From IMG/VR virus record IMGVR_UViG_3300012928_003129, positions 1-64,000 of that record: DNA of 64,000 nt. One strand, given 5' to 3'. The notes below the pieces were generated by a model, which saw nothing but the letters and a program-made list of their open reading frames with translations, was not told the DNA's origin and ran no database searches. The stretch comes from a virus. A program made the position numbers and the translations under genes. This document shows, one piece after another, positions 2,990-26,086 of this stretch (position 1 is its first letter; every line of letters begins with the position of its first letter).

Positions 2990-4633
2990 ATGTCCGTTAA
3001 ATTTACTAAAAATCAGATAAAAAACATTATACTAGAAGAACACAGAAAGCTTTTATTAGAAATAAACCTCTCTAGTATTAAGACCGTAGTCAAAGCTTTG
3101 AGCGGTTCGGATACGCTAGCGACGAAGCTTACACAGGTGTCGACTTTATCTAAGATGTTAGGTAAAGCTGAAATTGATAAGATGGTCAAAATCATTAAGG
3201 GAAGCGATAACACTGCTTTAGCTTCAAAGGCCTTTGTCAGAGAGTTAGATAATCTTATAAAATCAATAGATGATCTTTTAAAAAGTAAAAACTTGGATGA
3301 TGCTAGTAAAAAAATATTGGAAGCAGCCAAGAAGAATGCCGCAGCTGCCAGAAAAGCTGCAGAAGACGCTGGTCAAACGGCTTTGGCTATACCTAAGAAA
3401 GGGACGACTAGTTTGGCGGTCCAGACGGGCAAAGGTGGTGCAAAACAAGCAGCTAAGATGCCGAAGAAGCAACGTCTTCTGGCCGTCGCCGCGCTTCTAG
3501 GCACAGCTGGACTGGTAACTTATCTTATTAGTTTGCTTAGTTCAACTGATGAGGCTCTTGCCGGGCCAAAAAGATGTTTAGAGCAATTAGCTAAAGCTGC
3601 AGGCTTTGTCGACTCAAGCGGAAATCCTGATCCGAAGGCCATGGCACAGGCTCTGAAAAAACCGGATGTGTACGCAGCTATAATGAATGCAGGAGCACTA
3701 AAAGCTTATGTTCAAAACGGTGTTCTAGATCAACAATGTGTGGCTATTTTGCAAGCATATTTACCTGCACCGCCTGCACCTGGTCCAACACCTGGTCCTG
3801 GTGGTCCGAATTATAAAGCACAGCAGCAAAGCCAATTTGGCCGTTGTCGCACTTATGCAATTATGGTTACCAAGGGCCCCAAGAATATGGCAAAGGCTTT
3901 TGTAAAGGATATGAAGCACCTTCAAAGAACATTGGTTGAACTTGGATACAATTTGGGAACTTTCGGTCCCAATGGCGACGGCGTAGACGGAGATTACGGT
4001 AGAGCTGGATCTTTGACGAGAAAAGCCATAATAGCTTTGCAAAAATCAGTTGGCCTAAAAGGCAGAAAAGCTGATGGTGTTTGGGGCAAAGGTACAAGTA
4101 CTGCTATAGAGGCTTCAGTTAAAGCCACCCAATCGAATAAGATTTATGATGCAATAAAGAAGACTCTAGTTGGTCCTCCTTCAAAGTGTGCCGGCACGCA
4201 AACAGGCGGTCAGGATGCTGAAACTGGAAATGTCGATACACAGCAGGCTATTCGAGCTTATATGACTGCTTATAACATAATAAGAGGCAAGATACTTAGA
4301 AACCTTGAAGCTAAAAATGTTCAAGCACGAAAAGGTAGGATAGCAACGACACTAATTAGTCCATTTCTTCCTCCTTTAAGAGCCCGTACAGGTTTTTACG
4401 CATTCGATGGCCAAAGCTACAGCACAAGTAATCCGAAGCTAGGGCAATTGCTAATGACTAAACTTAAGGATTTGAAGAATAATGCAGCTAAAGCAGAACA
4501 ATCACTTGGGCTTAAGGGCGGCGAAGTAACAAGAATTATAAGCAGAGTAGGTGATGAATTCTTAGAAAGCGTTCTACAAGAATCAAAATCCTATAATTTG
4601 GACTTTAGTAAGTATTCTAAGCTCTGGGATTAA
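2990..4633 (+). CDS. Virion-type protein with PG-binding domain
   Basis: This is a 547-residue protein. Residues 1-24 form a Lys/Glu amphipathic helix ending 'LLLE', the recurrent N-terminal module of this genome. Coiled-coil and Lys/Ala-rich helices follow, then a hydrophobic segment (about 162-185, 'LAVAALLGTAGLVTYLISLL'), a Pro/Gly linker (about 260-274) and a peptidoglycan_binding_1 domain (about 306-375: 'LQRTLVELGY', 'VDGDYG', 'TRKAIIALQK', 'ADGVWGKGT'). The C-terminal part is helical and unrecognised. PG_binding_1 folds bind cell wall. With its two large neighbours it looks like a head- or tail-internal protein that crosses the envelope during injection. The domain is secure; the role is inferred. 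Confidence 0.78.
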   Translation: MSVKFTKNQIKNIILEEHRKLLLEINLSSIKTVVKALSGSDTLATKLTQVSTLSKMLGKAEIDKMVKIIKGSDNTALASKAFVRELDNLIKSIDDLLKSKNLDDASKKILEAAKKNAAAARKAAEDAGQTALAIPKKGTTSLAVQTGKGGAKQAAKMPKKQRLLAVAALLGTAGLVTYLISLLSSTDEALAGPKRCLEQLAKAAGFVDSSGNPDPKAMAQALKKPDVYAAIMNAGALKAYVQNGVLDQQCVAILQAYLPAPPAPGPTPGPGGPNYKAQQQSQFGRCRTYAIMVTKGPKNMAKAFVKDMKHLQRTLVELGYNLGTFGPNGDGVDGDYGRAGSLTRKAIIALQKSVGLKGRKADGVWGKGTSTAIEASVKATQSNKIYDAIKKTLVGPPSKCAGTQTGGQDAETGNVDTQQAIRAYMTAYNIIRGKILRNLEAKNVQARKGRIATTLISPFLPPLRARTGFYAFDGQSYSTSNPKLGQLLMTKLKDLKNNAAKAEQSLGLKGGEVTRIISRVGDEFLESVLQESKSYNLDFSKYSKLWD

Positions 4634-4661
4634 CTTCTATTGTCAAACTACTAAAACAAAA

Positions 4662-4680
4662 ACTACTTATATTGTATAAT
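4662..4680 (+). promoter_or_regulatory. ACTACTTATA motif and TATAAT box
   Basis: ACTACTTATA (4662-4671) is a copy of the phage motif and is followed closely by a perfect TATAAT (4675-4680). The ATG lies at 4701. No good -35 is visible for the TATAAT box. Confidence 0.45.
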
Positions 4681-4700
4681 ATGCAATATAGGTTTGTTTT

Positions 4701-7700
4701 ATGAAAAAAGTTGATCGCAAATTCCTCGAAGAACAAGTCAAAAAAGCTCTAAACGAGAAAGAAAAAGAAGAACAAAACTGGTTTATGAAAGCTTTAGCCG
4801 CGTCTGGTGAGGCCCACTCAGTTTCAGTTAAGGCACAGGCTGAGGCTGCCTACAAGATGGGTCCCATGATTTGGGAAATATTAAAGTCTTTACCTTTCGG
4901 CTCTCCACAGTCTTATGTTGATTTAATTAAGTGGGCTCAAGATACCGGGACCTACGGTATCGGCTCTCAGAAATATTACAAAAAAATAATAGATCTTCTC
5001 GGTCCGCTTCAAGATCCAGACGCCCGGGCACCTTGGGGCCAGCAAATGATAAGATTTGTAAATACTGCCCCAATTACTAAAGAAAATGCGTCCCAGATTA
5101 ATGTTGTTTTTAAAGAAGATCTTCAAAATGATTTTATAAAACTAAGAAATGATACAGCTAAGGCAATATATCTTGCAATTCAGGGTGGCAAAGATGTTGA
5201 AAAAGGCATATATGAAATACTGAGAGCGAAAACTTATGGATATGATCCGAATATTAGCGCCGAGGATGATTTCTTCAGCTCATGGTCACAAATTCGTGAT
5301 GCTTATGTTGGCCCTGAAGATGGTACTTTAGCTGATATAGCGGACGATTATAACTTTACAAAAACTTGGACAGATGGGCTTTGGGGCGCGCCCTTAAAAT
5401 TTGGCTTTATCAATTTGTTTAAAGACCCTAGACGATTTATGCAAAATGGAATGTACAAGGAATATAGCGAAGAGTTCGCAAAATTGCGTAATATGTCGCA
5501 AATCCAAGAAGCTGTTGAGAAGTTTATCATGATGCACTTTAATGGTCTTGAGGGCGCAAATTTCCCTCAAGCGTATCAAAGATTAATTGATAAAGCAGAA
5601 CTTCCTAGGATAGCAAAAGCAAAAGCAGCCTTTGAAACGTATAATGAATCTGGTCTTGCAGCATTGATTGGTGTTGCGGATATTTTAGTTTCTGTTCCTA
5701 CAACAGTAGTGTTTGTTGTAAGTATGTTGGGAGGGGTCACAATACCGGTTGGCTTGGCTGCAGCTACTGGTAAGAGAGCAGCTTTTTCTGCAGTTAGAAA
5801 ATCAGTACTTAAAAATACAACAAAGTTAAAAAATACAGCACAAAATGTACTAAAGGCTGAAAAATGGGGTATGACCATAAAAAGTATGGCATCTCTTAAG
5901 GCGCAATCTGGTCCATTAATCATGTTATTTGGCCAAATGGGTTGGGATGCTATTAAATCATATATAAACGACATCGATGACGAGTTTAAAAAATTCGTAG
6001 ATCTTTGTGAAGATCAGAGTGTTACTGCCGAGCAAAAGGCAGAATTTTATGATAATAATGTAAAACCCGCTTATGAGTATATTGCGCAGCAGCATGCAAG
6101 ATTATTTACTGCTGCTCAGTTTGATAAAGAAATCATTGTATCAAAAGTTGCTAAACCATCATACATTAGGAATTTATATATTAACTGTAAGCTATATGAA
6201 ATTCAAAAGATTAATGAAAATATTACTAAAGTCAACGCAGAAATGATGCAGCTCTCAGCCGCGATTCAAAAAATGTCTAAAGGTCTTGAAGATTTTGATG
6301 CAAATAACGCTAAGGTAGAACAAGCAATTAATAGAGCTGATGCGATATTAAATTCAGATACTAGTATGAAAATACCAGATCTAATCAAAACTCCGGTCGC
6401 TGTACCGAATATTGATAAACCAACGGCAAGTGACAAGCCTAAAAAAACAAATAATTTTGGTGGGGATGAAAAAACAAGCGATCAAATTTTAAAAAACATG
6501 CAAACATCATTTGGGTCAAATGAAAAAACAAGTAATCAAATTCTATCTGATATTGAAAATGCCCTGGGTGGTGCAATAAAAGAACAAGAAGAGACTCAAG
6601 TTATCTCTGTAAATCTTGGTTATAAAGATGCTTTGGAATATGCAAAAGGCACAGAAGGGTTTTCTCCCGAAACTACAAAAGCTAACATCGATAAGATAAA
6701 AAAATTAGTTCAAAGCAAAGGAAAACAAGTAAAATTTACTCCTGTTGCTGCTTTAACTGATGTCCCTGAGGGAGTCGACTCCAACAAGTTCAAAGAATTT
6801 GCAAAAGAAATAAATTCTCATATGCAAACCAAAAAAGTATCATCGATAACCAAGACCGCGCCCGCGGCGGGTGATAAACCGACTACTGATAAGGTTGATG
6901 CAACGCAACTTACCAAAGATGATATAATTATAGTTGGTGATAGTAATGCAGCTGCTCTAGCTTATTGGGGCAAACATAAAGGCAGGTCCAAATGGCCAGA
7001 AGATTATGTTAAGCACCCTAAATATGCAACGGGCGGAACTAGGATATATGTAGACTCAAAAACAAAAGAACCTCTAGAGCCTGCAATAGGGGCTGCCAAG
7101 ACCGGATATATATTGCAACGTTTGAAGATGTGGTACAAGGATAAGGGTGAGAACTATAGGCCTAGGATGGCCATTGTACATATGGGCTATAATGATAGAG
7201 AGCAGGCGCCGACGGAAGGGTTTGCAAATATACAAAAAACAGTTAACTTTTTGTCATCTAAGGGAGCGTCAGATATTAGAGTAGTCCTTCCAAAAGGTGA
7301 CCCAAGCCACAAAAAAAACGCAGATGTTGCAGAATGGATGTCAACATTATCAGATAGATTAGAAAATGAGCTTACAGGTGCAAAACTTATACCAAACAAT
7401 GGCCGATTTGGAAAAAAGAGCGATGGGTATCATTTTGTAAACAATCTTAAAATATACAATGATGCAATATCAGGTGTCACAGTAGCAGGATCGGCAAAAT
7501 CCAAACCTGCGACGAAAGCTGCAGTTACAAATCTCAGCAGTGGAGCTAAAAAGTATTATCCATTAATTAAAAGAGAGGCTGAAAAATTAGGATACCCCGT
7601 TTCAGTTGCAATGGGTGTTGCATACGCTGAATCTAATTTCCGTCCAAATTTAGTTTCTTCTGCAGGAGCAGTTGGGTTGATGCAACTAATGAAAGTAACC

Positions 7701-8875: not shown

Positions 8876-11800
8876 ATGCCTAATAAAAAAATTGAAAATT
8901 TATTAAACCAAAGAGATATAAAAGATTTAATAAATGAAAATATTATGTTGAGAGAATTTTCAATGTACGGCTGTGACGATCAACCCAGCAAAGTCCATGG
9001 ATACAATCCTTTTTCCAAAAAATGTATAGATATCACAAACTATCAGGGGCCCGATGCTCCCAAATCTATTCTAAGGCCAATAAAAAAGCCAGATAGAGAA
9101 GATCAAATTGCAAGTGTCACAGATAGTATTGGTGACTTCGCTGGATTTATATGGGACATTTATAAATCAGGAGTAGATTATAAAGAGATAGCAGATTGTG
9201 TATCAAATAATCCTGTTTTTTCTTTCTTGGGTTTGTTTTATGGAAGAGGAACAATAAAAATACTCCCAATGCTGGCTCAATCTTCTGGCAAGGCAATATA
9301 TTCTGCTTTCACAAAAACAGGAAAACTCCAAAATCAAATTGACACCTATGTAAGTGCTCGAAAAGGTACCTCGACAGGGTTGACAAATTTTCTTAAAAGA
9401 CTAGCAACTGGTGCGCTTTCGAGTGGTTACAAGGCAGGTAAATGGGGAACTGTTGCCGGTGTGATGGGTACGTACTTCATTTTAAACGCCGGAAGAAAAG
9501 AAAACCAAGGAGAAAATTACATGCCATGGGCCAATAAAGCATTGGACATCATGGAGAAAAATATATCTGGTGGGGATAGTAAGCAAAATTGGAAATGTTT
9601 TTTTGCAAGCGCGGTTACAGGCGTCGTCGCCGGAGTATTAATTAAAGGTGGGGCGCGAGGCCTTCTCAAGACCGCTAAAAATGTAAAATCTGGCCGTTGG
9701 AATGTTGCTGCAGACTTAATCAAATCTGCTCAAATGAGAAAATGGTTTGCCAATGCAATAAAAGACATAAAATCTGATCAATTGGTTATTTTTAAGGCCT
9801 TGCAGGAATCTGGTACGCTTCCTTCTAAAGTAAAGATTGTTGTTGACAATTCTTCTGGTCTTAATAGGTTAAAAGTTAAGGGTCTAGGCGATCAGCCGAT
9901 TAGAATACCATCTAGTGGCATGCCAGCAAGTTTGCAAAAATATGCTGTCAACGGTGAGTTGGTCTTAGATCCCAAATTATTAAAAGACGAACTGGTAACT
10001 GTTTCTGACGACATCAACAAAGCAGTACAGCAGTCATCAGGTGAAAGCTTAAGTTTACTCAGAAGTTCTAATTTTTATAAAAATGTAAAAGGCTTTAAAA
10101 AAGCAATGGAAAAATATGGAAACCTTCCAAGAGCACAGATTAGGTCTAAAGCGTTAAAAAATACTAGTGAAATTTTACAAGATTTATCTAAATCTCTAGA
10201 CTCGTCTTTACAGTCTGTTTCTCAATTACAAAAGAATGTACAAAAAGGAAAAGACCAAGTAAGAAAATTATTTGATGATATAGAGGGATTGGCAAATCAA
10301 AAGGGTTATGAAAAAATAGAGAAAGAAATTTTAGATTCTGCCACCAATATAAATGATGTTCAAAGAATAATTGATAGCGCGCTTCCGGGTATCGATAATG
10401 TTCCTACATCTTTCGTGGGCGGAGAAAGAGTCAATGTGAAAGAATTTGTTATAAACCACTTTAAAGAGACAAAAAAGTTGGATATAACAAAAAAAGGTAT
10501 CATTTCTGATATTGAGTTTGCAAGAAAGGCTATCTTAGACGATACCGGTGTTGTAAAATCGCTTTTTCCGGGCGGGAATGGTGCCGATGATTTGTCAGAC
10601 TGGCTAAGTAGTTCTGCCGGTGCGCCTTATAGAGACGTGTGGTCCAAACTTGACTCGAATGGAGATAGATTAGCAAAAATTGCAGCCACTATAGGCCCAA
10701 AAACGGCGACTGCGGTTAGATCACTATTTACTACCGCGGTGGTTCCAGTGGCGGCTTTCACACTTGGCGTTAACCTAGTATCTATGTTTTCAGCCAAAAA
10801 AATCGATGATAAAGAACAGCTAGATGAAATTGTTAGACTAATAGATGAGAAGCTAATTGAAACCAGTATTTCAAAGTACATGGATAAAGATGGAAATATT
10901 AAAGTTGAGACCCTTCTTTCAGATTTAATAAAAGCGCCTCTTGCAAACAAAGATTCTTTTATGTCTGATACAGTAAATTCACTAAAGCAGTTTAGAGATG
11001 CTCTAAAAACAAATAAAGAATATATTAAAGACATTAACAGCTTTACTAATGATGAAGAGACTTATTTAACAAAAGAATCTTTAAGAAGAAAAATAAAAGC
11101 AATTGTGAGAGGTACACTTTCCCCCAAAGGACAGAATACCGGACCTAAAAAAAATCAGACGTCGAACACGACTGGTCTTCTGTCTCAAATTCCGGAGGGG
11201 GATTTAAAGGCCAAATCACCTTTTAGCGTAAGTTTGGGTGCGCAAAATTTTCAAATTCAGTTTACTGATAAACATATCAGTATTGGAGAGAAAAAATTTC
11301 AGTTTTCTAAATTTGGTGTAGATGCTAACATAGAACAAGTAACAAAAAATAACAATAAAATAACAGCTAAACTTGTCGCAGGAATAATCGATGAGATTTT
11401 TGTATTTTCAGAATCAGACTTGCAATCACTTTTTCAGAAGGCTGTCTCTTTACAAACGGGTGAAAAAATATCAATTCAGGTTGGTGGCAAAACAGGAAAT
11501 ATTAAAAGAATTTCAGAAAATAGAGAGGTATTACAAATGAGCAAAAAAAATCTTAAACAACTGGTTTCAGAAGTTTTAAATGAAGCATACGGAAAATACC
11601 CGTACCATTCTAATGAACATACGGATGAAGAAGCAGACGAAGATTATATGGTAGAGTGGAATGCACTCGTAGATGAAGTGTGTGGAAATAAAAAGAAAAA
11701 TTTTGATGGTGACCCAAAAACTTTTGAAGACGCGGCAGTTGAAGTTGCAAAACTGTTCGTAAAAGACTCAGAACTTTTTAGAGAAGTATTAGAACTTGCT

Positions 11801-11887
11801 GGATCTAATAAATCTGTTGGTGTAGAAATAATGCAACAACTTAAAGCCGCTAAAGAAAAAAGTCTTGACAAAGAATTAAAAGTATAG
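8876..11887 (+). CDS. Large membrane-active virion-type protein, unknown
   Basis: I recognise no enzyme domain in this 1,003-residue protein. It has three hydrophobic stretches (about residues 190-206, 241-260 and 617-640), coiled-coil segments ('QSVSQLQKNVQKGKDQVRKL' region) and a beta-rich part near 780-880. It follows two wall-active proteins with similar architecture, so a role in an ejection or internal-virion complex is plausible. At residue 888 (ATG 11537) an in-frame start with its own ribosome site (AGAGAGG, 11522-11528) precedes 'SKKNLKQLVSEVLNE', the recurrent Lys/Glu module. The last 116 residues may therefore be made as a separate acidic protein or cleaved off. Confidence 0.68.
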   Translation: MPNKKIENLLNQRDIKDLINENIMLREFSMYGCDDQPSKVHGYNPFSKKCIDITNYQGPDAPKSILRPIKKPDREDQIASVTDSIGDFAGFIWDIYKSGVDYKEIADCVSNNPVFSFLGLFYGRGTIKILPMLAQSSGKAIYSAFTKTGKLQNQIDTYVSARKGTSTGLTNFLKRLATGALSSGYKAGKWGTVAGVMGTYFILNAGRKENQGENYMPWANKALDIMEKNISGGDSKQNWKCFFASAVTGVVAGVLIKGGARGLLKTAKNVKSGRWNVAADLIKSAQMRKWFANAIKDIKSDQLVIFKALQESGTLPSKVKIVVDNSSGLNRLKVKGLGDQPIRIPSSGMPASLQKYAVNGELVLDPKLLKDELVTVSDDINKAVQQSSGESLSLLRSSNFYKNVKGFKKAMEKYGNLPRAQIRSKALKNTSEILQDLSKSLDSSLQSVSQLQKNVQKGKDQVRKLFDDIEGLANQKGYEKIEKEILDSATNINDVQRIIDSALPGIDNVPTSFVGGERVNVKEFVINHFKETKKLDITKKGIISDIEFARKAILDDTGVVKSLFPGGNGADDLSDWLSSSAGAPYRDVWSKLDSNGDRLAKIAATIGPKTATAVRSLFTTAVVPVAAFTLGVNLVSMFSAKKIDDKEQLDEIVRLIDEKLIETSISKYMDKDGNIKVETLLSDLIKAPLANKDSFMSDTVNSLKQFRDALKTNKEYIKDINSFTNDEETYLTKESLRRKIKAIVRGTLSPKGQNTGPKKNQTSNTTGLLSQIPEGDLKAKSPFSVSLGAQNFQIQFTDKHISIGEKKFQFSKFGVDANIEQVTKNNNKITAKLVAGIIDEIFVFSESDLQSLFQKAVSLQTGEKISIQVGGKTGNIKRISENREVLQMSKKNLKQLVSEVLNEAYGKYPYHSNEHTDEEADEDYMVEWNALVDEVCGNKKKNFDGDPKTFEDAAVEVAKLFVKDSELFREVLELAGSNKSVGVEIMQQLKAAKEKSLDKELKV
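11537..11887 (+). CDS. Possible nested in-frame product with packaging-like N-terminus
   Basis: An in-frame ATG at 11537 has a good ribosome site (AGAGAGG, eight bases upstream) inside the 1,003-residue gene. The product would be 116 residues. It starts 'MSKKNLKQLVSEVLNE', matching the N-termini of other proteins in this window, and continues as an acidic, Asp/Glu-rich helical domain. Either two proteins are made from one reading frame, or this is the scar of a gene fusion that kept the old ribosome site. The start is visible; its use is inferred. Confidence 0.4.
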   Translation: MSKKNLKQLVSEVLNEAYGKYPYHSNEHTDEEADEDYMVEWNALVDEVCGNKKKNFDGDPKTFEDAAVEVAKLFVKDSELFREVLELAGSNKSVGVEIMQQLKAAKEKSLDKELKV

Positions 11888-11899
11888 TAAGGTATTTTA

Positions 11900-12385
11900 A
11901 TGGAACATATAGTCAAACAAAATTGGGTTACTGGTAGTGATCACGAGATTGACTTTTATGATTTATTAAAACTAACCAGGCAATACCTTCAGAAAGGTTC
12001 CAAAATATTTATTGGAACTGACTCTTTTATATCAAAATCTACAGTATGTTTTGCTTCTGCAGTCTGTCTTCATGGTGGTCAACTTGGGGGAAGGTATTTT
12101 TTTTATAAACAAAACTTGCCCAAAAATCAATTTTCCCATTTAGTGTCCAGAATAACAGAAGAAACCAGAAGATCTGTTGAGATTGCCTGTCTCTTTATGA
12201 ACGAATATAATATAGACCCTTCTAGTATTGAACTACACCTGGATGTTAGTCCATTTGGGGCGAATAACGGCACTTCACGCTACTCTGACATGCTAAAAGG
12301 GTATGTGCAGGGGTTTGGTGTGGAATATCGCTTAAAACCGGATGCTTGGGCTTCTCAAACAATAGCGGATAAACATTCAAAATGA
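11900..12385 (+). CDS. YkuK/DUF458-type RNase H-fold protein
   Basis: This 161-residue protein fits the DUF458 (B. subtilis YkuK) family, which has a ribonuclease H-like fold. The first acidic strand is 'KIFIGTDSF' (Asp41), a second is 'ELHLDVSP', and the C-terminus carries 'KPDAWASQTIADKHSK', supplying the further acidic and His residues expected at a two-metal site. The family is generally about 160-170 residues, so it is full length. The substrate is unknown; a nuclease role is inferred from fold. The stop overlaps the next ATG (12382). Confidence 0.75.
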   Translation: MEHIVKQNWVTGSDHEIDFYDLLKLTRQYLQKGSKIFIGTDSFISKSTVCFASAVCLHGGQLGGRYFFYKQNLPKNQFSHLVSRITEETRRSVEIACLFMNEYNIDPSSIELHLDVSPFGANNGTSRYSDMLKGYVQGFGVEYRLKPDAWASQTIADKHSK

Positions 12386-12749: not shown

Positions 12750-13145
12750 ATGATAAGAGTAAGAATAGTGCCAAATGATATAAAGACTGTTGCGAAAGTT
12801 ATTTTAATTGACGATGACGATAAAGTGCTTTTCCTGAAAAGATCAGATTACATGGAAAAATTTGCAGGAGATTGGGACCTTCCTGGTGGACATCTAAAGC
12901 AAAATGAGAGTTTGTTTGATGGACTGTCTAGAGAAGTCAAGGAGGAGACAGGATTGATTGTCAAAAATCCAAAATTAGTAGAAATACAGGCAAACTTACA
13001 CTTTTTTTGTGCAAAATACAATGCTGATCCGATTAAAATAAGCCATGAGCACACGGAGTTCAAGTTTTTTGAAAAAAACGAGCTTAATGAAAAAGAAAAG
13101 TTTCAAAAAGTAGCCCTTAAGGCCCTGGAGATGAAAAATGATTAA
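12750..13145 (+). CDS. Nudix hydrolase
   Basis: This is a 131-residue Nudix protein. The Nudix box is complete: 'GGHLKQNE', seven residues, then 'REVKEETGL' (about residues 46-70), giving the metal-binding REx2EE. Such enzymes hydrolyse nucleoside diphosphates linked to another group (NTPs, NAD(H), capped RNA, sugar nucleotides); the substrate cannot be read here. The ATG at 12750 has GGAG eight bases upstream and is preferred over an in-frame TTG at 12729 that overlaps the promoter-like motif. It overlaps the next gene by eight bases. Nearby nucleotidyl- and ligase-type enzymes suggest nucleotide or RNA metabolism. Confidence 0.9.
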   Translation: MIRVRIVPNDIKTVAKVILIDDDDKVLFLKRSDYMEKFAGDWDLPGGHLKQNESLFDGLSREVKEETGLIVKNPKLVEIQANLHFFCAKYNADPIKISHEHTEFKFFEKNELNEKEKFQKVALKALEMKND

Positions 13146-13941
13146 ATTTTCTATCAAAAAGCAAGATTTCGATTTTAATACTGGTTTATTAAAGCCGAAA
13201 GACACACTTTACCCTAAAATATGGAAAAATAACAAAATCGATCCAATTGTAGCAAGAAAATTAATGAAAATCGCAGACGATGTTATCAGATCACTAGAAA
13301 TAGAAGAACATGTTGATGATATCATAATTACAGGCTCGATTGCTTCCTATAATTGGCATGAAATGTCAGATATTGACCTTCACATTATGTTGGACTTCGA
13401 TAAGATTGATAAAAACTTTGATTTGGTTAAAAAAATGCTAGATCAAACAAGAATTAACTGGAACAAGAAACATAATATTTTTATTCACGGAAAAGAGGTC
13501 GAATTATACTTTCAACACTATACAGAAACCCATGAAGCTAACGGTATATGGTCTCTAGAGATAGGGAAATGGTTGGCAAACCCAGTAAGACTTGATCCTG
13601 AAATAGATATTGTAACCACAGAGAAAAAAGCAGAAGCAATAGCGATGCAGATAGAGCACTTGTTTGATATGTTTCACCAGCAAAAATTTAAAGAAACATA
13701 TGAGTATGCAGATAAAGTAAAAGTCAAAATTGCAAGAATGAGACAGTTAGGATTATCGGATCAAGGTATTTATTCTCCAGAAAACCTTGCGTTTAAGATG
13801 TTGAGAAACGCCGGATACTTAGAAAAACTTTCTGCACTCAAAATTGAAGCGTATGACCGCATGATGTCTCTTAGCCTCAAGTCGAAGTCGATAGATGAAA
13901 ACAAGGTGTGGAGAAACTATTTAAATCAGGGGGATAAGTGA
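13138..13941 (+). CDS. Pol-beta-type nucleotidyltransferase
   Basis: This is a 267-residue protein with a minimal nucleotidyltransferase domain. The 'ITGSIASYNW' glycine-serine motif (Gly66-Ser67) is followed by 'SDIDLHI' carrying the metal-binding Asp78 and Asp80; a third acidic position may be in 'KEVELYF'. The remainder is helical. The fold transfers NMP to a protein, RNA or small molecule. Phages carry members of unknown target. It follows the Nudix gene in an overlapping pair. Toxin-antitoxin MNT is an alternative but there is no HEPN partner beside it. Confidence 0.78.
   Translation: MIKFSIKKQDFDFNTGLLKPKDTLYPKIWKNNKIDPIVARKLMKIADDVIRSLEIEEHVDDIIITGSIASYNWHEMSDIDLHIMLDFDKIDKNFDLVKKMLDQTRINWNKKHNIFIHGKEVELYFQHYTETHEANGIWSLEIGKWLANPVRLDPEIDIVTTEKKAEAIAMQIEHLFDMFHQQKFKETYEYADKVKVKIARMRQLGLSDQGIYSPENLAFKMLRNAGYLEKLSALKIEAYDRMMSLSLKSKSIDENKVWRNYLNQGDK
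13916..13925 (+). promoter_or_regulatory. ACTATTTAAA motif inside gene end
   Basis: A motif copy lying within the last codons of the nucleotidyltransferase gene, 16 bases before the ATG at 13942, with CAGGGGG between. Its coding location makes it less certain than the intergenic copies. Confidence 0.3.
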
Positions 13942-15680: not shown

Positions 15681-16997
15681 ATGATTGATAAATTAAAACC
15701 ATTATTGGGCAAATTATGTTCCTTTTCCCAGAAAAGACTAGGCTTTTCTCATCCTCCAAAACTTTTTTTAAAAAGCGATTCAGAGAATGCTGAAAAAACA
15801 TTGGGAAAAACAGCACATTATGATCCGAATAATTCCTCAATCACTCTTTTCACTACTGGAAGACACCCGAAAGATATTCTAAGATCTTTTTCGCACGAAC
15901 TAGTTCATCATGCACAAAATCTCAGGGGTGACCTAGCGCCGGAAAAAATGACCAGTACTGGTGCTAATTATGCCCAAGAATGTCCACACATGAGAAATAT
16001 GGAAAAAGAGGCCTATTTAAAGGGTAACATGTGTTTTCGTGACTGGGAAGATCAATATAAACTAACAGAATCGGAGTCAAAATTTTTAAAGGAGAATAAA
16101 ACAATGACCACAAAGATAACAAAGGACTTTTTAAAAGAACAGATAAAAAGTGCCATAAAAGAATTTGAATTAAGAGGGCAAGGAAAATATAGTGATTACA
16201 TGTCTAGCCTAGGCTCGGACTCTATCAAGTATCAAGGCACTGGTACACAAACCCCACCAGCGAAAAAGCCGGTTGCCAAAAAAAAGCCAGATCTTAGCAA
16301 CACTGTGATATCTCATTTACAGGATTTTAAAACTCACGTACACAAAAAATATGGAGTTATGCCAGACTTTTCAGACAGTGGTGGATTTAAATCTGCTTTT
16401 GCAGATGCTAAAGCATTGAAAGTGCCTTTCTTTTACTTTGGACCTGGTAAGTATAAAATTTATGCAACCGGTCTAGGAAAGGACCCACTCAGTCTAGATG
16501 ATCTTAAAGCTAAATATCAAGAATACGGCGATGAAGCTATGGCTCAGATTGAGCCTGAGATTGATAATTTAGCTGCTACATTGAACCCGAAAAAAGAGAA
16601 GCCCGTCGTCGGCTCGCCCTTAGAGGAGACTGATGAAATAGAAGAAGGTGGTTGTGGCAAAGGTGGTTTAGGTAGACGAACAGATGATAAAGTTAAAGAA
16701 ACTAAAGGCATTGAAGAAAAGAAAAAATGCCCGGGTAAAAGCTGCCCGGGCTGCCCGGAGTGTAAGCCAGGGCTAAAAAATGAACAAGAAGAGTTAGAAG
16801 AAAAGAAGACCAAGAAAAAGAAAAAGAAAAAAGGTAAATACGACGATGGCGATGGCAAAGATGAAAAGTGCGATTATGTTCCATGTAAAGAGTCTGTGAT
16901 TCAAACGCCGGAGCAGGAAAATACTCTTTATGAGCAAAGATTTACTCCAAAGAACAATAGACTATTTGAAAAACTTCTCCAAGAATGGACAAAGTAA
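15681..16997 (+). CDS. Zincin domain fused to Lys-rich packaging-like protein
   Basis: The 438-residue product has two parts. Residues 1-130 contain a metalloprotease signature HELVH (72-76) in 'SFSHELVHHAQNLRGD', with a downstream Glu candidate in 'NMEKEAYLKGN', which fits a gluzincin-like fold. At residue 142 (ATG 16104) an in-frame start with AAAGGAG nine bases upstream begins 'MTTKITKDFLKEQIKSAIKE', the recurrent helix module, followed by about 280 residues of Lys/Glu/Pro-rich, cysteine-bearing sequence with a poly-lysine stretch and a 'CDYVPC' segment. A TTG at 15672 is a possible but weaker start. Fusion of a protease with a cargo-type domain, or two products from one frame, are both possible. 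Confidence 0.72.
   Translation: MIDKLKPLLGKLCSFSQKRLGFSHPPKLFLKSDSENAEKTLGKTAHYDPNNSSITLFTTGRHPKDILRSFSHELVHHAQNLRGDLAPEKMTSTGANYAQECPHMRNMEKEAYLKGNMCFRDWEDQYKLTESESKFLKENKTMTTKITKDFLKEQIKSAIKEFELRGQGKYSDYMSSLGSDSIKYQGTGTQTPPAKKPVAKKKPDLSNTVISHLQDFKTHVHKKYGVMPDFSDSGGFKSAFADAKALKVPFFYFGPGKYKIYATGLGKDPLSLDDLKAKYQEYGDEAMAQIEPEIDNLAATLNPKKEKPVVGSPLEETDEIEEGGCGKGGLGRRTDDKVKETKGIEEKKKCPGKSCPGCPECKPGLKNEQEELEEKKTKKKKKKKGKYDDGDGKDEKCDYVPCKESVIQTPEQENTLYEQRFTPKNNRLFEKLLQEWTK
16104..16997 (+). CDS. Possible nested product of the zincin gene
   Basis: A strong ribosome site (AAAGGAG, 16088-16094) lies nine bases before an in-frame ATG. The predicted product has 297 residues and opens with the Lys/Glu helix ending 'AIKE'. 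It then carries low-complexity Pro/Lys linkers, cysteine pairs ('CPGKSCPGCPEC') that could bind metal, and a poly-Lys tract. Internal initiation would give this part without the protease domain. The site is clear; use is inferred. Confidence 0.45.
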   Translation: MTTKITKDFLKEQIKSAIKEFELRGQGKYSDYMSSLGSDSIKYQGTGTQTPPAKKPVAKKKPDLSNTVISHLQDFKTHVHKKYGVMPDFSDSGGFKSAFADAKALKVPFFYFGPGKYKIYATGLGKDPLSLDDLKAKYQEYGDEAMAQIEPEIDNLAATLNPKKEKPVVGSPLEETDEIEEGGCGKGGLGRRTDDKVKETKGIEEKKKCPGKSCPGCPECKPGLKNEQEELEEKKTKKKKKKKGKYDDGDGKDEKCDYVPCKESVIQTPEQENTLYEQRFTPKNNRLFEKLLQEWTK

Positions 16998-17011: not shown

Positions 17012-20000
17012 ATGGATAATAAATTGCTCTTAGAAGGTGGCGTCGGTGGACACATGAACCACCCTTATGACATAGATGATCTCACTTTTGGAGATCTAAA
17101 AGATATGCTAAGGGCTGCAGCAAATGGTGAACTGCAAGGATCCGAAAAGACTGACGGTCAAAATTTATATATAACTTTTGACGTAGAATCCCAAAAAGCA
17201 AAAGCAATTAGAAATCAAACCCAAATCAAAGCAGGTGGGCTGACACCCGAACAACTGGATGATTTCTTCTCCAGCCACCCAGCGCAAGCCCTAAGATACA
17301 GTTTTGTAGAGGCTTTATCAACTTTTGAGAATTTTGCTATAGAGCTGACGAGAGAGACACAGCTAGAAATCTTTGGACCTGATGGGGCGATTTATTTTAA
17401 CACCGAAATAATGAACCCTGGGACTCCTGGTTTTGATAAAGATGATCCTAGAGGCATGGGTACCAAGAACGTTATACCGTATGATAAAAAAACTATCCTT
17501 GTACACCCTTCTGGGCATAAAGAGTTCGAGAGAGAAACTGCAAAAGATTTAGAAACTAACCTCATTTCAAATTATAGAACACTTAAATCAGCATTAGAAG
17601 GTAAACAAGTAGAGGATCCGGGGATTTTTTCAATAGAGACGCATCCTCTTAGAAAATTACATCCAAAAGGGCTAGAAAAAGCAAATAACTTACTTCCTAG
17701 AACAATTTCACAAATTGACAATATTGTAAAAGATGCTAGCGCTACTGATGATACTCCTATTGTTAGATACGTTATAGATCAAGTCAAAGCTGATATAAAT
17801 ACTGCAACACCGGGCCTAAGTGAGGAGAGACTCGAAGACTTAGCTACAAAATTTCTAAAGTTATGTAAAAGAACGGATGGCGAACCCGGGTATCTGAGAT
17901 GTGGCGACAAGAAGAATAAAAAATTTATAAAACCAAACGAAAATATAAGAAACTTGATCGCTGGTCTGTCCGGAGATGAACTACAAGGAATAAAGTCTTT
18001 TGCATCATCATTTTCAGAAGGAAGATACCGACGACCTTTAGCCATGGCCCTTGCAGATTTTACTAATGCAATTCTTGATGGGTTTGACTCTTCTTTTATT
18101 TCTGATAATGAAAAACAATTAAATTCACTAAAGGGTGAACTTAGCAAAGTTGTGAAGCAAATTGCTAAATCAGACAATGAGGCTGCAAAAGATGGACTTA
18201 GAATCGAATTGGAGAAGTTGAAAAATATAGATAATATCAATACTCCTTCTGAGGGTTTTGTCTTTGACTTCAAAGGGGAAGAGTTTAAGTTCACAGGCGC
18301 TTTTTCGCCAATGAATCAAATATTGGGCATGCCTAAGTTTAAAAGATATGGAGAAATAGCCCCTATGGAGACAATAGCGGTCTTTCCTGGCTCTTTTAAG
18401 CCTCCACATAGGGGACACTTAGAAGTTGTTAAAGCAATCTCTCAAAACGCCGATAAGACACTCGTGATTGTATCTAGGCCAACACAAAATCAGAGAACTC
18501 TTCCTTTATCTGGAAAAATTATTGGATCCACAGAAGCCATAAACCTTATGAGAGCAATGCTTGAGGGTACTGGTCTCGAAGATAAAGTTGAAGTGTTGTC
18601 AGGGGCAGATGCTTCTCCGATGATGACTACGATAAAATACGTCACCTTTCCAGCGGATGAAGAAAATCCTCTTGTAGCCCCAGAAAATGCTGAGATTATT
18701 CTTGGTGTTGGAGAAAAAGGTGATGATGCTAAACGTTATTCTGGTCTCCCGGAAAAGGTTAGAGAAAAAAGGCCCGATTTGGATCTTGAGACTACTCCAA
18801 CCCCTGCAGTTTCTCATGATAAACAATATCTTTCTTTGCTTCAAAGTGAACAGTATTCAGATATTTTAGAGAAAATGCCAAGTAAAAGCTCAGGTGCTGG
18901 TATACAACTTTTTCATGCATCTGATATGAGATTTCTTATGGATTTGGCTGCACAGGATCTTAGAGCAGTAAACCTTCTTGCTGATTTTGTTGGAGGTATA
19001 GAAAAGGTGCCAAGTGTTTTAGATGCAGTTGGCATTGTTCCAGCGACACAGTCCAGCCCAGAAGAAGACCAAGTTGAAGAGCCGGAACTTGAAGGCCCAC
19101 CAGAGGATGAAGTCAATGCAGATGATCTTGCGGAGATTGTCTATGAAGAAACCATGAAAGTTTTCGAAGCATTCAAATCACAAAAAGCGCCGAAAGCTAG
19201 ACCTTCGAAGGGTAAGTTTCAGCGAAGAATGCGCAAAAGGCTTTCTAAGGCTCATAGAACCTATTTAGATATGGGCAGAAAAGATTTAACAAAACACGGT
19301 GGTGGTTTTAGGAAAAATAGAAAAAAAGATATTTCAAATGCTTTTTTGGCTGAGGATGAAATAGAGGAATTAAGTTCTGTTGCTTCCGGAGCAATACAAA
19401 TGGCCCCAGCAGTAAAGCGAGATTATAATGCTACAAGGAATGATAAAAAAATGAACAAAAAAGAACAAATACTTCGAAAGAAGATAAGAATCAGTCTTCA
19501 AGAATTCTTTAACACAAAATCAAAAGAGCATGAAACTACAGTTGCTAAAATACTTGAAGAGCACGAACTTAGGATGCAGTTGAGAGAGATCATTTTAGAA
19601 CAAACTCTTAATGAAGCAGAAGATCCCACAACTGATGTTCATGATAATACTGGCATTAACACTTTAAAAGATTTAATGAAAAACACAAACGTATTAGCAA
19701 CCTTAAGAACAGTTTATAAGACTTTAACAACTGATGAAAATCAAAAGAAATCTTTTAGAGCACACATTATAAAGTGGACTCAAGATACATTAGCGCCAGT
19801 CAAACTGAATGACACTGACGCTGAAGCTGTGAATGAACAGGTTGGTGTTGATATAGAAGGTGTAAATGATGATATGTTCATTGATGCTAGCGACGGCTCA
19901 GAAAAAGATAACCCTGATGTCCCTGAAGAAGAAAATGAAAAGATGCAAGCAATTTCCGGAGAAGATACCACTGGGCGAAATAAGGCCGAAAGAGTTTATC

Positions 20001-21015: not shown

Positions 21016-21036
21016 TTTAACCGCGGAGGAAAATAA

Positions 21037-21441
21037 ATGAAACTTATAATGGAAAATTGGAAAAGGTTCATAAAAGAAGTCAAAGTCCCACAAGGTAAGG
21101 ACAGAGAATATTATATAGAAGACCCAAACTTATCTCTAACTGTAGAAACCAGCGATGGAAAGCAACATGTAATCAAAGCCTTAGAGATAGAAACAGGATG
21201 GTATGGAGACACCTCTCAGGGAGCCTTCAAATATTCGATAAATAACGAAGAATACACTTGGGAACTCACTTCAGGATGGTATCCTGACGGTGCGGCCTGG
21301 AGAATACTAGAACATCTGGGAGAGGACGGTTCTGAAAATAATTCTGATGAACCAACTGAAATAGAAGAGACCATAGAAAGATTTATAGAATCTCAAGTAA
21401 AAAGAAACCCCAATTACGAATTTGATGATGAATGGTACTAG
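21037..21441 (+). CDS. 'MKLIMENW' N-terminus protein, unknown
   Basis: This 134-residue protein opens with 'MKLIMENWKRFIKE', almost the same as the start of the protein at 1992/2004, and the (I)KE end fits the recurrent (L/I)-x-E pattern. Residues 20-95 are beta-rich and aromatic ('ALEIETGWYG', 'YTWELTSGWYPDGAAW'); the tail is acidic. It has no recognised domain. A strong CGGAGGA site supports the start. The conserved N-terminus suggests a sorting signal placed on different bodies. Confidence 0.65.
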   Translation: MKLIMENWKRFIKEVKVPQGKDREYYIEDPNLSLTVETSDGKQHVIKALEIETGWYGDTSQGAFKYSINNEEYTWELTSGWYPDGAAWRILEHLGEDGSENNSDEPTEIEETIERFIESQVKRNPNYEFDDEWY

Positions 21442-21447
21442 ATTAAA

Positions 21448-21457: not shown

Positions 21458-21473
21458 ATAGGAGGATATTACT

Positions 21474-21542
21474 ATGAGTGATACAAAGAAATGTAAATGC
21501 TGTGAATGTTGTACATGCGACTGTGATAAATGCACTGAATAG
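21474..21542 (+). CDS. Cysteine-rich 22-residue peptide, metallothionein-like
   Basis: A very short gene with a near-perfect ribosome site (AGGAGG, 21460-21465, eight bases before the ATG) and its own upstream motif. The product has 22 residues, eight of them Cys (positions 7, 9, 10, 12, 13, 15, 17 and 20), in CxC and CC patterns with Lys, Glu, Asp and Thr between. This is the composition of a metallothionein-like metal-binding peptide. The next gene starts 11 bases after the stop with GGGAG. Because it is so short it could be missed by annotation tools. No homologue is recalled. Function (zinc or copper buffering, redox, or a structural peptide) is inferred. Confidence 0.6.
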   Translation: MSDTKKCKCCECCTCDCDKCTE

Positions 21543-21553
21543 GGAGATAAACA

Positions 21554-22068
21554 ATGCCAAAATTTTATAGACAAAATAAAAAGAGAATTGACCCTCGTTA
21601 CTTTTTAAACGAGACAACAAATAGAGATGAAAATATCAATGAGATTGATTTAGATTACGCATCCGACTTGGAATATCAATACAACCAAGCAAAGGAATAT
21701 GAAAAGAAGACTGAACAAGGATATACGGATAAACAAAAAGAGGACATGGAAACCTCTTTAGAGTTTAAAGTAATGCAACCAGAACGTGATGAAGTTTTAT
21801 CTCAAGATGACCAGATCAAATTTGCAGATGTTATGAATGCATCCATGAATGGTGATCTTAGCCCTGAGCAAATTAAGGAATTGATTCTTGCCACCGACGA
21901 CGACAACCTCGACAACCTGAAGAAAGTTGTAAGCAAAATCGCTGGAAGTGGACAACAAGGGACCGGTGCTGGTATCGACTTATCTAAGGTCGACCGAGAT
22001 CGCGACGGTAAAATATCTGCTGACCAATTAGCAAATATTGCAAACGCTATAAAAAAGAATCAAGCTTA

Positions 22069-22069
<1 letters not shown>
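21554..22069 (+). CDS. Unknown protein, 'RIDPRYFLNE' N-terminus
   Basis: The 171-residue protein starts 'MPKFYRQNKKRIDPRYFLNE', a basic segment ending in an L-N-E site like the other packaging-type N-termini. It continues as acidic helices ('DYASDLEYQYNQAKEYEKK') and ends with 'SKVDRDRDGKISADQLANI', which matches an EF-hand-like or dockerin-like calcium loop (D-x-D-x-D-G-x-I). The last base of its TAG stop is also the first base of the tmRNA acceptor stem. I recall similar N-termini in marine phage proteins, function unknown. Confidence 0.65.
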
Positions 22070-22376
<307 letters not shown>

Positions 22377-22390
22377 CCAAAATTCACACA

Positions 22391-22433
22391 ATTGACACAC
22401 AGTTTCCTGTAAGATAGGGTATACTTATCTGAA
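22391..22433 (+). promoter_or_regulatory. Partial sigma70-like elements before transporter
   Basis: TTGACA occurs near 22391 and TATACT about 22 bases further on, a spacing longer than ideal, followed by AAAGGAAC before the ATG at 22445. It may be a weak early promoter. Confidence 0.25.
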
Positions 22434-22444
22434 AAAGGAACAAT

Positions 22445-23380: not shown

Positions 23381-23381
23381 T

Positions 23382-23391
23382 ACTATTTATT
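23382..23391 (+). promoter_or_regulatory. ACTATTTATT motif two bases before ATG
   Basis: A motif copy two bases from the ATG at 23394, with no ribosome site. The geometry is identical to 15440 and 24256. Confidence 0.5.
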
Positions 23392-23393
23392 AT

Positions 23394-24254: not shown

Positions 24255-24255
24255 C

Positions 24256-24265
24256 ACTATTTAAT
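24256..24265 (+). promoter_or_regulatory. ACTATTTAAT motif two bases before ATG
   Basis: A motif copy starting just after the cysteine synthase stop and ending two bases before the ATG at 24268. There is no ribosome site. Confidence 0.5.
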
Positions 24266-24267
24266 AC

Positions 24268-24837
24268 ATGGACAAGAAAACATTAATACAAATTATCAAA
24301 GAAGAAGTTGAAAAGCTGCTCTCTGAGAAGAAAAAAGAAAAGAAACATGCCATGTATAATCCTAAAACAGGTAAGAAGGAAATGGCAGATGGTGAAAAGC
24401 ATAAGAAATTAGCAAAGAAAGGCTATGTTCACTTTGATCCAAAAAAGGTCATAGCGGCCACTGATAAGGAAGGCGGCGCCGCCGGCCTTGACGCAATAGT
24501 AAAACACACCAATGCTGATAAAGAAGAATTAAAAAAAAATATCACAAAAGTAAAAGGTATAGTAAAACATACTAAAGGTGATTATATCACAACAAGTACT
24601 GGCCGAAAAGTTGCTGAAGAAATAATAAAACAAGAAATTGAAGCCGTTCTTGATGAGAAACGAAAAAAACGTAAAAAGAAAAAAAAGAAAAAGAAATCTT
24701 CCGGGAAAAAAGATGCCTGCTACTACAAAGTAAAAAGCAGATATAAAATATGGCCCTCAGCTTATGCGTCCGGTGCATTAGTGCGTTGTCGCAAGGTCGG
24801 AGCAAAAAACTGGGGCAACAAGAGCAAAAAGAAATGA
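24268..24837 (+). CDS. Basic DNA-associated protein with DACY domain
   Basis: The 189-residue, extremely basic protein begins with the recurrent module 'MDKKTLIQIIKEEVEKLLSE' and has a second copy-like helix 'EEIIKQEIEAVLDE' near residue 120. A poly-lysine stretch follows, then a C-terminal domain 'DACYYKVKSRYKIWPSAYASG' with 'LVRCRKVGAKNW'. I recall this last motif from phage and giant-virus proteins of unknown function. The composition suits binding packaged DNA. Start codon use depends on the motif directly upstream. Its stop overlaps the next start (ATGA). A role in the virion core is inference. Confidence 0.7.
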   Translation: MDKKTLIQIIKEEVEKLLSEKKKEKKHAMYNPKTGKKEMADGEKHKKLAKKGYVHFDPKKVIAATDKEGGAAGLDAIVKHTNADKEELKKNITKVKGIVKHTKGDYITTSTGRKVAEEIIKQEIEAVLDEKRKKRKKKKKKKKSSGKKDACYYKVKSRYKIWPSAYASGALVRCRKVGAKNWGNKSKKK

Positions 24838-25319
24838 AAAAACAAGAACTTATTGACATTATAAAAGAAGAGATTGAGATTATCTTATTGGAAAGGTGTC
24901 AAAAAGGTTACAAAACTCATCCAAAAAGAAAAACCAAAAAAATGTATGGAAAGACATACAGAAATTGTATAAAAGCTGAAGAAGCAAATGAGGAACCAGA
25001 TACAGACGAGGTTTTAGGCGAAAAGAAAAGTAAACGAGATGGAAAAGGATCCCGTAGCAAAGGTTATTCTCTTAGAGATTGGTTTAAAGGTGGTGGATGG
25101 GTCCAGACAGGTGGAAAGTACGACGGAAAACCTTGTGCAAAACAACCTGGACAAAAATCAAAACCATATTGCAGAGACCCTGATGATAGAGCTAAATTAA
25201 GCAAATCAGAGAGAGAAAAAAGAGTTAAAAAGAAAAGAAGAGAGGATGGAGATTCAAATAGACGTGGTCCCGCTAAGAACGTAAGTCAAAAACGTAAAAA
25301 AAGGAAGAGTAAAAAATAA
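24834..25319 (+). CDS. Basic DNA-associated protein, module N-terminus
   Basis: This 161-residue protein begins 'MKKQELIDIIKEEIEIILLE', a close relative of the start of the previous protein, so the two arose from the same module. The rest is Lys/Arg-rich with cysteines; one block reads 'FKGGGWVQTGGKYDGKPCAK' and ends near 'PYCRDPDDRAKLSKSEREKR'. This resembles small basic virion proteins of large viruses. The ATG at 24834 overlaps the previous TGA and is preferred over an upstream in-frame ATG at 24750 inside the earlier gene. Probably a nucleic-acid binding capsid interior protein. Confidence 0.7.
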   Translation: MKKQELIDIIKEEIEIILLERCQKGYKTHPKRKTKKMYGKTYRNCIKAEEANEEPDTDEVLGEKKSKRDGKGSRSKGYSLRDWFKGGGWVQTGGKYDGKPCAKQPGQKSKPYCRDPDDRAKLSKSEREKRVKKKRREDGDSNRRGPAKNVSQKRKKRKSKK

Positions 25320-26086
25320 TGAAAAAAATAAATATTAATATAACAGAAGGAGGTTGCGATCCTTGCAATGCTGCAGCGCCACTCCCAGAAGATCCAAAGA
25401 ACTATAAAAATGTACATAATGGCGAGGAGGCCAGAATGCACAGAACAACGCTTGCTCATCTTATGGCTGATGTAAAAGTTCTATTAGATTTGATAGATGA
25501 TGAAGATGATCTACCAGAGTGGCTAGAAACTAAGATTACTAAGGCAGGAGATTATATGTCATCCGCGGCACGATACATTGCCGGCAACGAAGCTAGAGAC
25601 CACGGACAACTTGAAGAAAAGAAAAATTGCGGATGCGACCAAGACCCTTGCATAACTTACGGAAAACAACAAATAAGTGAAGAGGTTATAGAAGAAGATG
25701 TTTGCAGCATCAATGATTATTTTAATCTTTATGAAGCACTTCAGGACGCTGTAGATGAAAATGGAAATACGCCTTGTCCACAATGTTTGTATGAAACACT
25801 AGTGGAGAATGACTCAGCACCAGTCGAAATGTTGGAAGAGGCTAAATATAAGGGAAAGAAAGTTAAGCTCGGAAAACCTCGCCGCGGCGGCTCTAAAAAG
25901 TTTTATGTTTACGTAAAGGGTTGCGCAAAAGATAAATCCCGTGTAACAAAAGTAAGCTTTGGAGATCCAAATATGAAAATAAAAAAGTCTAACCCGAAAC
26001 GAAGAAAGTCTTTCAGAGCGAGACACAAATGCGCAACAGCAAAAGACAGGTGCACTGCAAGATATTGGTCATGCAGAAAGTGGTAA
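25319..26086 (+). CDS. Cys-rich basic protein with conserved C-terminal domain
   Basis: This 255-residue protein starts 'MKKININITEGGCDPC'; the I-T-E site before 'GG' fits the (L/I)-x-E pattern. Residues 30-100 form helices around 'MSSAARYIAGNEA', followed by cysteine pairs ('CGCDQDPC', 'CPQC'). From about residue 180 a basic domain follows: 'YKGKKVKLGKPRRGGSKKFY', 'KVSFGDPNMKIKK' and 'RRKSFRARHKC', ending 'ARYWSCRKW'. I recall this C-terminal domain in many marine phage proteins and as a tail of prohead-associated proteins, without a solved function. It overlaps the previous stop (TAATG). A structural or DNA-binding virion role is inferred. Confidence 0.68.
   Translation: MKKININITEGGCDPCNAAAPLPEDPKNYKNVHNGEEARMHRTTLAHLMADVKVLLDLIDDEDDLPEWLETKITKAGDYMSSAARYIAGNEARDHGQLEEKKNCGCDQDPCITYGKQQISEEVIEEDVCSINDYFNLYEALQDAVDENGNTPCPQCLYETLVENDSAPVEMLEEAKYKGKKVKLGKPRRGGSKKFYVYVKGCAKDKSRVTKVSFGDPNMKIKKSNPKRRKSFRARHKCATAKDRCTARYWSCRKW

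What the first reader, a model, noticed from the sequence alone, without database searches (positions are those of the whole stretch)
2990..25400. Recurrent N-terminal helix ending in (L/I)-x-E on many unrelated proteins: possible head-packaging signal
Proteins at 2990, 4701, 24268 and 24834 start with a short Lys/Glu amphipathic helix ending in LLE, LNE, LSE or LLE. Shorter variants ending in (L/I)-x-E open the proteins at 17012 (LLE), 21037 (IKE), 21554 (LNE) and 25319 (ITE). The bodies behind the helix are unrelated (transglycosylase, basic DNA-binding proteins, a ligase-like fusion). In T4, capsid-targeting sequences such as 'MKTYQEFIAE' are cut by the prohead protease after (L/I)-x-E. This pattern fits a shared address tag for proteins loaded into the head and ejected with DNA.
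Basis: partly seen in the sequence, partly recalled or inferred. Interest (0 to 1): 0.9.

Follow-up and report, generated by a model that had tools for sequence, protein, structure and literature searches.

The report
Capsid-loading tags on phage proteins
Many unrelated proteins of this phage group, mostly found in the sea, begin with the same short tag, which matches in its key positions the tag phage T4 uses to load proteins into its head; reading it may reveal which proteins these phages inject into bacteria.

Summary
The window is part of a 76-kb fragment of a T4-like phage. In nine related contigs the pattern hydrophobic-x-x-hydrophobic-[LI]-x-E peaks sharply at E14: 47 proteins, 21.6 times the internal rate. 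There are two forms, MKITKxxLKxIIKE and MKLLLENWRKFLNE. Both share the register of the T4 internal-protein tag MKTYQEFIAE, and one body family can carry either. Tag-selected contigs of at least 100 kb nearly always encode a T4 gp21-type protease (21/23; 0/4 random). Their capsid proteins have L-x-E at the expected cut. Tagged bodies include an ADP-ribosyltransferase, kinases and NUDIX hydrolases. In two cyanophages with published virion proteomes, all five ORFs starting MKx[F/L]xxFLxE are virion proteins. Packaging and cleavage are not shown in the window's own lineage. Verdict: a large, two-form expansion of the T4 capsid-targeting system.

The parts
24268..24327 (+). Class-1 tag MDKKTLIQIIKEEVEKLLSE on a basic protein (body homologous to proteins of hundreds of T4-like cyanophages); predicted cuts IKE (E12) and LSE (E20)
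   Evidence: Top hit of class-1 HMM trained without this genome; body ortholog carries a class-2 tag in G003_111512; cyanophage homologs
24616..24657 (+). Internal class-1-like copy EEIIKQEIEAVLDE in the same protein, before the Lys-rich stretch and the CYYKVKSRYKIWPSAYASG domain; possible polyprotein cut
   Evidence: HMM hit iE 0.058; coordinates
24834..24893 (+). Class-1 tag MKKQELIDIIKEEIEIILLE on a basic protein
   Evidence: HMM hit; body homolog S-CREM2 ORF160 detected in virions
2990..3061 (+). Class-1 tag MSVKFTKNQIKNIILEEHRKLLLE on a 547-aa protein with a PG_binding_1 domain
   Evidence: HMM hit; Pfam
4701..4757 (+). Possible divergent tag MKKVDRKFLEEQVKKALNE on a 1383-aa SLT transglycosylase protein
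   Evidence: Sequence likeness only, not scored by the class-1 HMM; Pfam SLT E 1.4e-16
21037..21078 (+). Class-2 tag MKLIMENWKRFIKE on a 134-aa protein
   Evidence: Top hit of class-2 HMM; E14 register
1992..2042 (+).
   Evidence: Second hit of class-2 HMM
21554..21613 (+). Possible divergent class-2 end ..YFLNE
   Evidence: Third hit of class-2 HMM, weak
25319..25348 (+). MKKININITE: doubtful or eroded tag; orthologs elsewhere carry class-1 or class-2-like tags
16104..16163 (+). Internal Met-preceded class-1-like copy MTTKITKDFLKEQIKSAIKE within ORF 15681-16997 (fusion or polyprotein)
11537..11584 (+). Internal Met-preceded class-1-like copy MSKKNLKQLVSEVLNE within ORF 8876-11887

Best explanation
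The N-terminal helices are capsid-targeting leaders of the phage T4 type, in a longer form (typically 14 residues ending at a Glu) and in two interchangeable versions: class 1 MKITKxxLKxIIKE and class 2 MKLLLENWRKFLNE. A tagged protein would be drawn into the assembling prohead by the leader's binding to the scaffold or core (inferred). The gp21-type protease would then cut after the [LI]-x-E (inferred from motif and protease), releasing the cargo into the head to be ejected with the DNA (inferred). Internal copies would let one chain be cut into several cargos (inferred). Shown: the recurrent, position-fixed, protein-level tag on unrelated bodies; exchange of the two classes on one body family; co-occurrence with the S77 protease; L-x-E sites in head proteins; and virion presence of cyanophage proteins carrying the T4-like form.
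For: Position: E14 peak, 47 proteins, 21.6 times the internal rate, aromatic form 91 times. In viral contigs class 1 has ATG exactly 3 codons upstream in 161/176 cases and class 2 exactly 5 upstream in 103/133; in bacterial and archaeal genomes the class-2 pattern occurs only 11 times and 1 is near an ATG. 228 tagged ORFs fall into 167 body clusters. One body family takes either class. Same-residue codons differ in 26-40% of comparisons, so selection is on the protein. S77 in 21/23 tag-selected contigs of at least 100 kb against 0/4 random ones, and in 34/50 against 5/30 overall (P 9e-6); S78 in 0/32. L-x-E in MCP, scaffold, core and protease N-termini; tagged accessory genes beside the protease in four genomes. 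T4 control: the pattern at E10 gives IPII, IPIII, gp24 and gp61.1. Virion proteomics: S-CREM2 ORF6, 13, 14, 154 and S-SCSM1 ORF91. Cargo types suit takeover: ADP-ribosyltransferase (as T4 Alt), kinases, RNA-repair enzymes, NUDIX.
Against: No protease or head gene lies in the 76-kb fragment itself. Co-occurrence with S77 may be shared descent. Class 1 has Leu/Ile where the T4 tag has the aromatic targeting residues. No virion proteome was found for a phage with the E14 forms; the MS evidence is for the T4-like short form in cyanophages, detection does not prove position inside the head, and the authors note possible co-purification. The S-CREM2 homolog of 24834 lacks a strict tag. T4-type late promoters were not found upstream of tagged genes, nor of head genes.
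Confidence: 0.8

Rival explanations
1. The helices are a docking tag for something other than the prohead (host membrane, a replication or transcription complex, the ribosome), and the Glu ending is a feature of the helix.
For: Class 1 is a Lys/Glu amphipathic helix by sequence; no direct packaging data in this lineage.
Against: Register identical to the T4 leader; S77 co-occurrence; tagged genes beside the protease; virion presence of proteins with the T4-like form; two chemically different forms share only hydrophobic-x-x-hydrophobic-[LI]-x-E.
Confidence: 0.1
2. Only the aromatic class 2 is a capsid leader; class 1 is a different signal, or a core-protein-like helix that binds the scaffold and is not cut at E14.
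For: T4 targeting residues 4 and 7 are aromatic, which class 1 lacks; class 1 resembles the N-terminus of the conserved protein just downstream of the protease (MKKSDLKxIIKPIVKECI) and has a second LxE near residue 22.
Against: The same body family carries class 1 or class 2; both end at E14 with I/L-x-E; both kinds sit beside the protease.
Confidence: 0.2
3. A DNA-level effect: a mobile or duplicated start region that boosts translation.
For: ATG-proximal position; tandem tagged genes (10 adjacent pairs against 2.2 expected).
Against: 26-40% of same-residue codons differ within one genome; internal in-frame copies; two forms with different DNA on the same body.
Confidence: 0.03
4. Chance: short Lys/Glu helices with L-x-E are common at N-termini.
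For: Bare [LI]xE is only mildly enriched; 4701, 21554, 25319 and 17012 are weak or not tags.
Against: E14 peak P about 3e-45; 161/176 and 103/133 at a fixed distance from ATG.
Confidence: 0.02

Closest known systems
T4 capsid-targeting sequence (CTS) of internal proteins IPI, IPII, IPIII, cut by gp21 after [LI]-x-E (PMC9026906, PMC3012670)
   Same: N-terminal leader, aromatic-x-x-aromatic-[LI]-x-E register (class 2), gp21-type S77 protease in relatives, unrelated cargo, effector-like cargo (T4 Alt is an ADP-ribosyltransferase)
   Different: Leader typically 14 rather than 10 residues; a second, non-aromatic form; up to about 12 tagged genes per genome; internal copies; body families exchange the two forms
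P1 DarB N-terminal packaging signal (PMC9024508)
   Same: N-terminal signal under 30 residues sends a protein to the head and works on a reporter
   Different: P1 Dar proteins share no consensus; whether the P1 protease is of the S77 type was not tested here
phiKZ/SPN3US head-protein propeptides (PMC9026906, PMC5694885)
   Same: Head proteins cut after Glu by a distant gp21 homolog; ejected cargo
   Different: phiKZ motif is S/A-x-E; no uniform 14-residue leader is described in the passages read
Cyanophage virion-associated kinase, NMNAT/cytidylyltransferase and SAM hydrolase (PMC10665884, PMC9602691)
   Same: Non-structural proteins in purified virions; their N-termini carry the T4-like leader (found here)
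   Different: The passages read do not describe a leader; the E14 forms were not seen in these two phages

Membership tests
T4-type capsid-targeting sequence (CTS) | Short N-terminal leader shared by otherwise unrelated proteins | tested here: met
   228 tagged ORFs in 167 body clusters; fixed distance from ATG
T4-type capsid-targeting sequence (CTS) | Leader ends in the gp21 cleavage motif [LI]-x-E | tested here: met
   E14 peak of hydrophobic-x-x-hydrophobic-[LI]-x-E, 21.6 times internal
T4-type capsid-targeting sequence (CTS) | Aromatic targeting residues 6 and 3 positions before the Glu (T4 IPIII Y4, F7) | tested here: inconclusive
   Met by class 2 (W, F/Y; aromatic pattern 91 times at E14); class 1 has Leu and Ile there
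T4-type capsid-targeting sequence (CTS) | Phage encodes a gp21-type (S77) prohead protease | tested here: met
   All nine relatives of at least 120 kb, and 21/23 large tag-selected contigs; none in the 76-kb fragment itself, which lacks head genes
T4-type capsid-targeting sequence (CTS) | Head proteins of the same phage carry the same cleavage motif | tested here: met
   MCP LLENQAKELL(R/K)E or close variant, scaffold LLEQ, protease DLLTE or DVLSE, core V(L/F)xE or close variant, in relatives; sequence only
T4-type capsid-targeting sequence (CTS) | Leader is removed by the protease in the prohead | not testable with these tools
   Needs N-terminal proteomics
T4-type capsid-targeting sequence (CTS) | Leader is necessary and sufficient for packaging of a protein | not testable with these tools
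   Indirect: 5/5 strict T4-like leaders in S-CREM2 and S-SCSM1 are MS-detected virion proteins
phiKZ-type propeptides (S/A-x-E) | S or A two positions before the Glu | tested here: not met
   The position is I or L in the E14 tags
S78 prohead-protease systems | Peptidase_S78 encoded | tested here: not met
   0/32 large tagged contigs; none in the fragment

The most novel reading that the evidence does not exclude
The tags are a readable export code: across uncultured T4-like phages they mark a large, fast-changing set of injected effectors (kinases, an ADP-ribosyltransferase, LRR and RNA-repair proteins), with two leader types that may use different binding partners (class 1 mimicking the core-type protein beside the protease, class 2 the T4 internal-protein leader), and internal copies that make polyprotein cargo cut inside the head.
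Probability: 0.45. Interest if true: 0.85.

Novelty: new variant of a known kind. Interest (0 to 1): 0.72.

Why it matters
If true, the injected protein set of a very common group of uncultured phages can be listed from sequence alone, from the first 14 residues. It gives a test for function in a large part of phage dark matter: most tagged bodies match no family, and those that do look like host-takeover enzymes. It also supplies natural leaders for protein delivery by phage heads and explains why kinases, NMNAT and SAM hydrolase turn up in cyanophage virions.

Tried and rejected
Bare [LI]xE as a signature: too common. S78 protease: absent. T4-type late promoter TATAAAT upstream of tagged genes: 1/60 against 46/1620, and 3/118 in head modules, so uninformative. 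Orthologs of 4701 and 2990 in viral contigs: none found, so tag conservation on those two could not be tested. tblastn with the bare tags against phage records: no useful match. Motif strings in papers: no phage paper. 17012 as a tag: rejected. Invariant M1 and E14 in the alignment of 87 proteins is partly built in, because the DNA patterns that fetched them fix E14; the independent evidence is. Structure prediction was not used: it would not show packaging.
Full report
What the window is. The window is 64,000 bases of a 76,181-base virus record. The part beyond the window holds only the rest of a gene shared with the window and one very long tail-type gene. The fragment encodes T4-type baseplate proteins but no head genes and no prohead protease, S77 or S78. 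Relatives had therefore to be used for the head. The gp6-like protein at 60518-62323 found 335 related stretches in viral contigs; the 80 kept loci include several contigs of 120-203 kb. Eight of these were read in full and genes called on them.

Check of the observation. The N-termini are as quoted. The bare [LI]xE motif is only mildly enriched in N-terminal 25-mers. Profiles trained on tags of other contigs, with none from this genome, give a fairer test: 24268, 2990 and 24834 lead for class 1 (with an internal copy in 24268 between them), and 21037, 1992 and 21554 for class 2. The single-hit E-values are modest and shuffled proteomes reach 0.026, so the case rests on the group, not on one protein. 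4701 is a look-alike not scored. 17012 is the start of a conserved domain and not a tag. 25319 is doubtful in this genome, but orthologs are tagged.

Position and register. In nine contigs (this one plus eight) the pattern hydrophobic-x-x-hydrophobic-[LI]-x-E has a sharp peak with its Glu at residue 14: 47 proteins, 21.6 times the internal rate; the aromatic form has 18 there, 91 times (Poisson P about 3e-45). Two forms make up most of the peak: class 1, MKITKxxLKxIIKE(E), often with a second LxE near residue 22, and class 2, MKLLLENWRKFLNE. The T4 IPIII leader is MKTYQEFIAE; targeting depends mainly on residues 4 and 7, processing on 8 and 10 (PMC9026906). Aligned on the Glu, class 2 matches all four key positions; class 1 matches the two processing ones and has aliphatic residues at the targeting ones. 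As a control, the same pattern at E10 in the T4 sequence read here picks IPII, IPIII, gp24 and gp61.1; the first three are known gp21 substrates.

How widespread. In viral contigs the ATG lies exactly 3 codons upstream in 161/176 class-1 cases and exactly 5 upstream in 103/133 class-2 cases; in cellular genomes 1/11 lies near an ATG. Positions fixed by the search patterns are not counted as conservation. Codons for the same residue differ in 26-40% of comparisons within a genome, so the protein, not the DNA, is kept. Complete tagged ORFs, 228 of them, form 167 body clusters. Tagged genes tend to be neighbours (10 adjacent pairs against 2.2 expected).

Exchange of tags. The 24268 family has class 1 here and class 2 in G003_111512; the 25319 family has class 1 in G001 and a class-2-like start in G004; the 13138 family has class-2 leaders of different length in five relatives and none here. 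Different tagged genes stand next to the prohead protease in G005 and G009 (class 1) and in G006 and G007 (class 2). This argues that both classes do the same job.

Link to head maturation. All nine relatives of at least 120 kb encode the S77 protease. Of 23 other contigs of at least 100 kb chosen only by a tag, 21 have it; of 4 random contigs of that size none do; at all sizes 34/50 against 5/30. S78 is in none of 32. Shared ancestry of the tagged contigs is a caveat. In the eight relatives the major capsid protein has LLENQAKELL(R/K)E or a close variant where T4 gp23 is cut, the scaffold LLEQ, the protease DLLTE or DVLSE, and the protein next to it a start (MKKSDLKxIIKPIVKECI...LLEEG) that resembles class 1.

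Link to virions. The body of 24834 has homologs in 273 phage records, nearly all cyanophages. One, S-CREM2 ORF160, was detected in CsCl-purified virions (PMC10665884), though it lacks a strict tag. In S-CREM2 a leader pattern set before looking matches 4/52 virion proteins and 2/157 other ORFs (P 0.035); the stricter MKx[F/L]xxF[LI]xE, set afterwards, matches SAM hydrolase, kinase, cytidylyltransferase and ORF13, all virion proteins, and no other ORF. Applied to S-SCSM1, the strict form matches one ORF in the genome, the NMNAT ORF91 MKSFLQFLKE, again an MS-detected virion protein. Both papers warn that such proteins might co-purify, and neither mentions a leader in the parts read.

What the cargo is. 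Most bodies match no family. Those that do include ADP-ribosyltransferase, two protein kinases, LRR, RNA-repair HAD and tRNA-ligase phosphodiesterase domains, polynucleotide kinase, NUDIX, RNase T, transglycosylase and nucleotidyltransferase. This is what an injected takeover set would look like, and T4 Alt is itself a packaged ADP-ribosyltransferase (annotation).

Mechanism. Shown by sequence: recurrent, position-fixed leaders with the T4 register; exchange between forms; protease and cut-site context; virion presence of proteins carrying the short T4-like form. Inferred: binding to the scaffold or core, cutting after E14, packing, ejection, and cutting of fused cargo at internal copies (24268, 15681, 8876 here; G006_106766 and G003_109460 in relatives).

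Novelty. Capsid-targeting leaders are known from T4, and a general role in T4-like phages has been suggested (PMC9026906). New here are the 14-residue forms, the non-aromatic class 1, their scale and diversity in uncultured phages, the exchange of forms, and the link to published cyanophage virion proteomes. No phage paper holding the motif strings was found in the library searched, which does not prove that none exists.

Noticed in passing
T4 NC_000866 18966-19130 (minus): T4 gp61.1, a 54-aa protein annotated as hypothetical, starts MKTFKEFIKED, a near copy of the internal-protein leaders; an overlooked candidate internal head protein.
   Followed up: partly
L095:18715-19122 and equivalents in eight relatives: Conserved 133-159 aa protein directly downstream of the S77 protease (or after one inserted tagged gene) with a class-1-like N-terminus; no PHROG match; candidate prohead core protein.
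   Followed up: partly
L182, class-1 match at 11927-11962: An ORF consisting of the tag alone (22 aa, MKLTKSRLKQIIKEEIRSMIYE then stop).
   Followed up: no
window 22069-22376: Phage-encoded tmRNA with tag peptide ANDDVETFEDFALAA, between tagged genes.
   Followed up: no
Relatives, after the core-type protein (e.g. L095:19136-19363): Small basic protein resembling ribosomal protein S21 in the head module; annotated as RpsU in Microcystis phage Mel-JY01.
   Followed up: no
window 13138-13941: Nucleotidyltransferase-type protein whose relatives carry class-2 leaders (MYTWKKFIEE, MSFDKWREFLAE, MSSLAKNWKNFLKE) while this copy has none.
   Followed up: partly
window 32449-46051: Long run of glycosyltransferase and sugar-nucleotide genes (RmlC-like, aminotransferase, acetyltransferase, epimerases).
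   Followed up: no
G060 (L237, 146,705 bases): Large contig matching the class-1 pattern but without an S77 hit; the match lies at the locus edge and was not examined.
   Followed up: no
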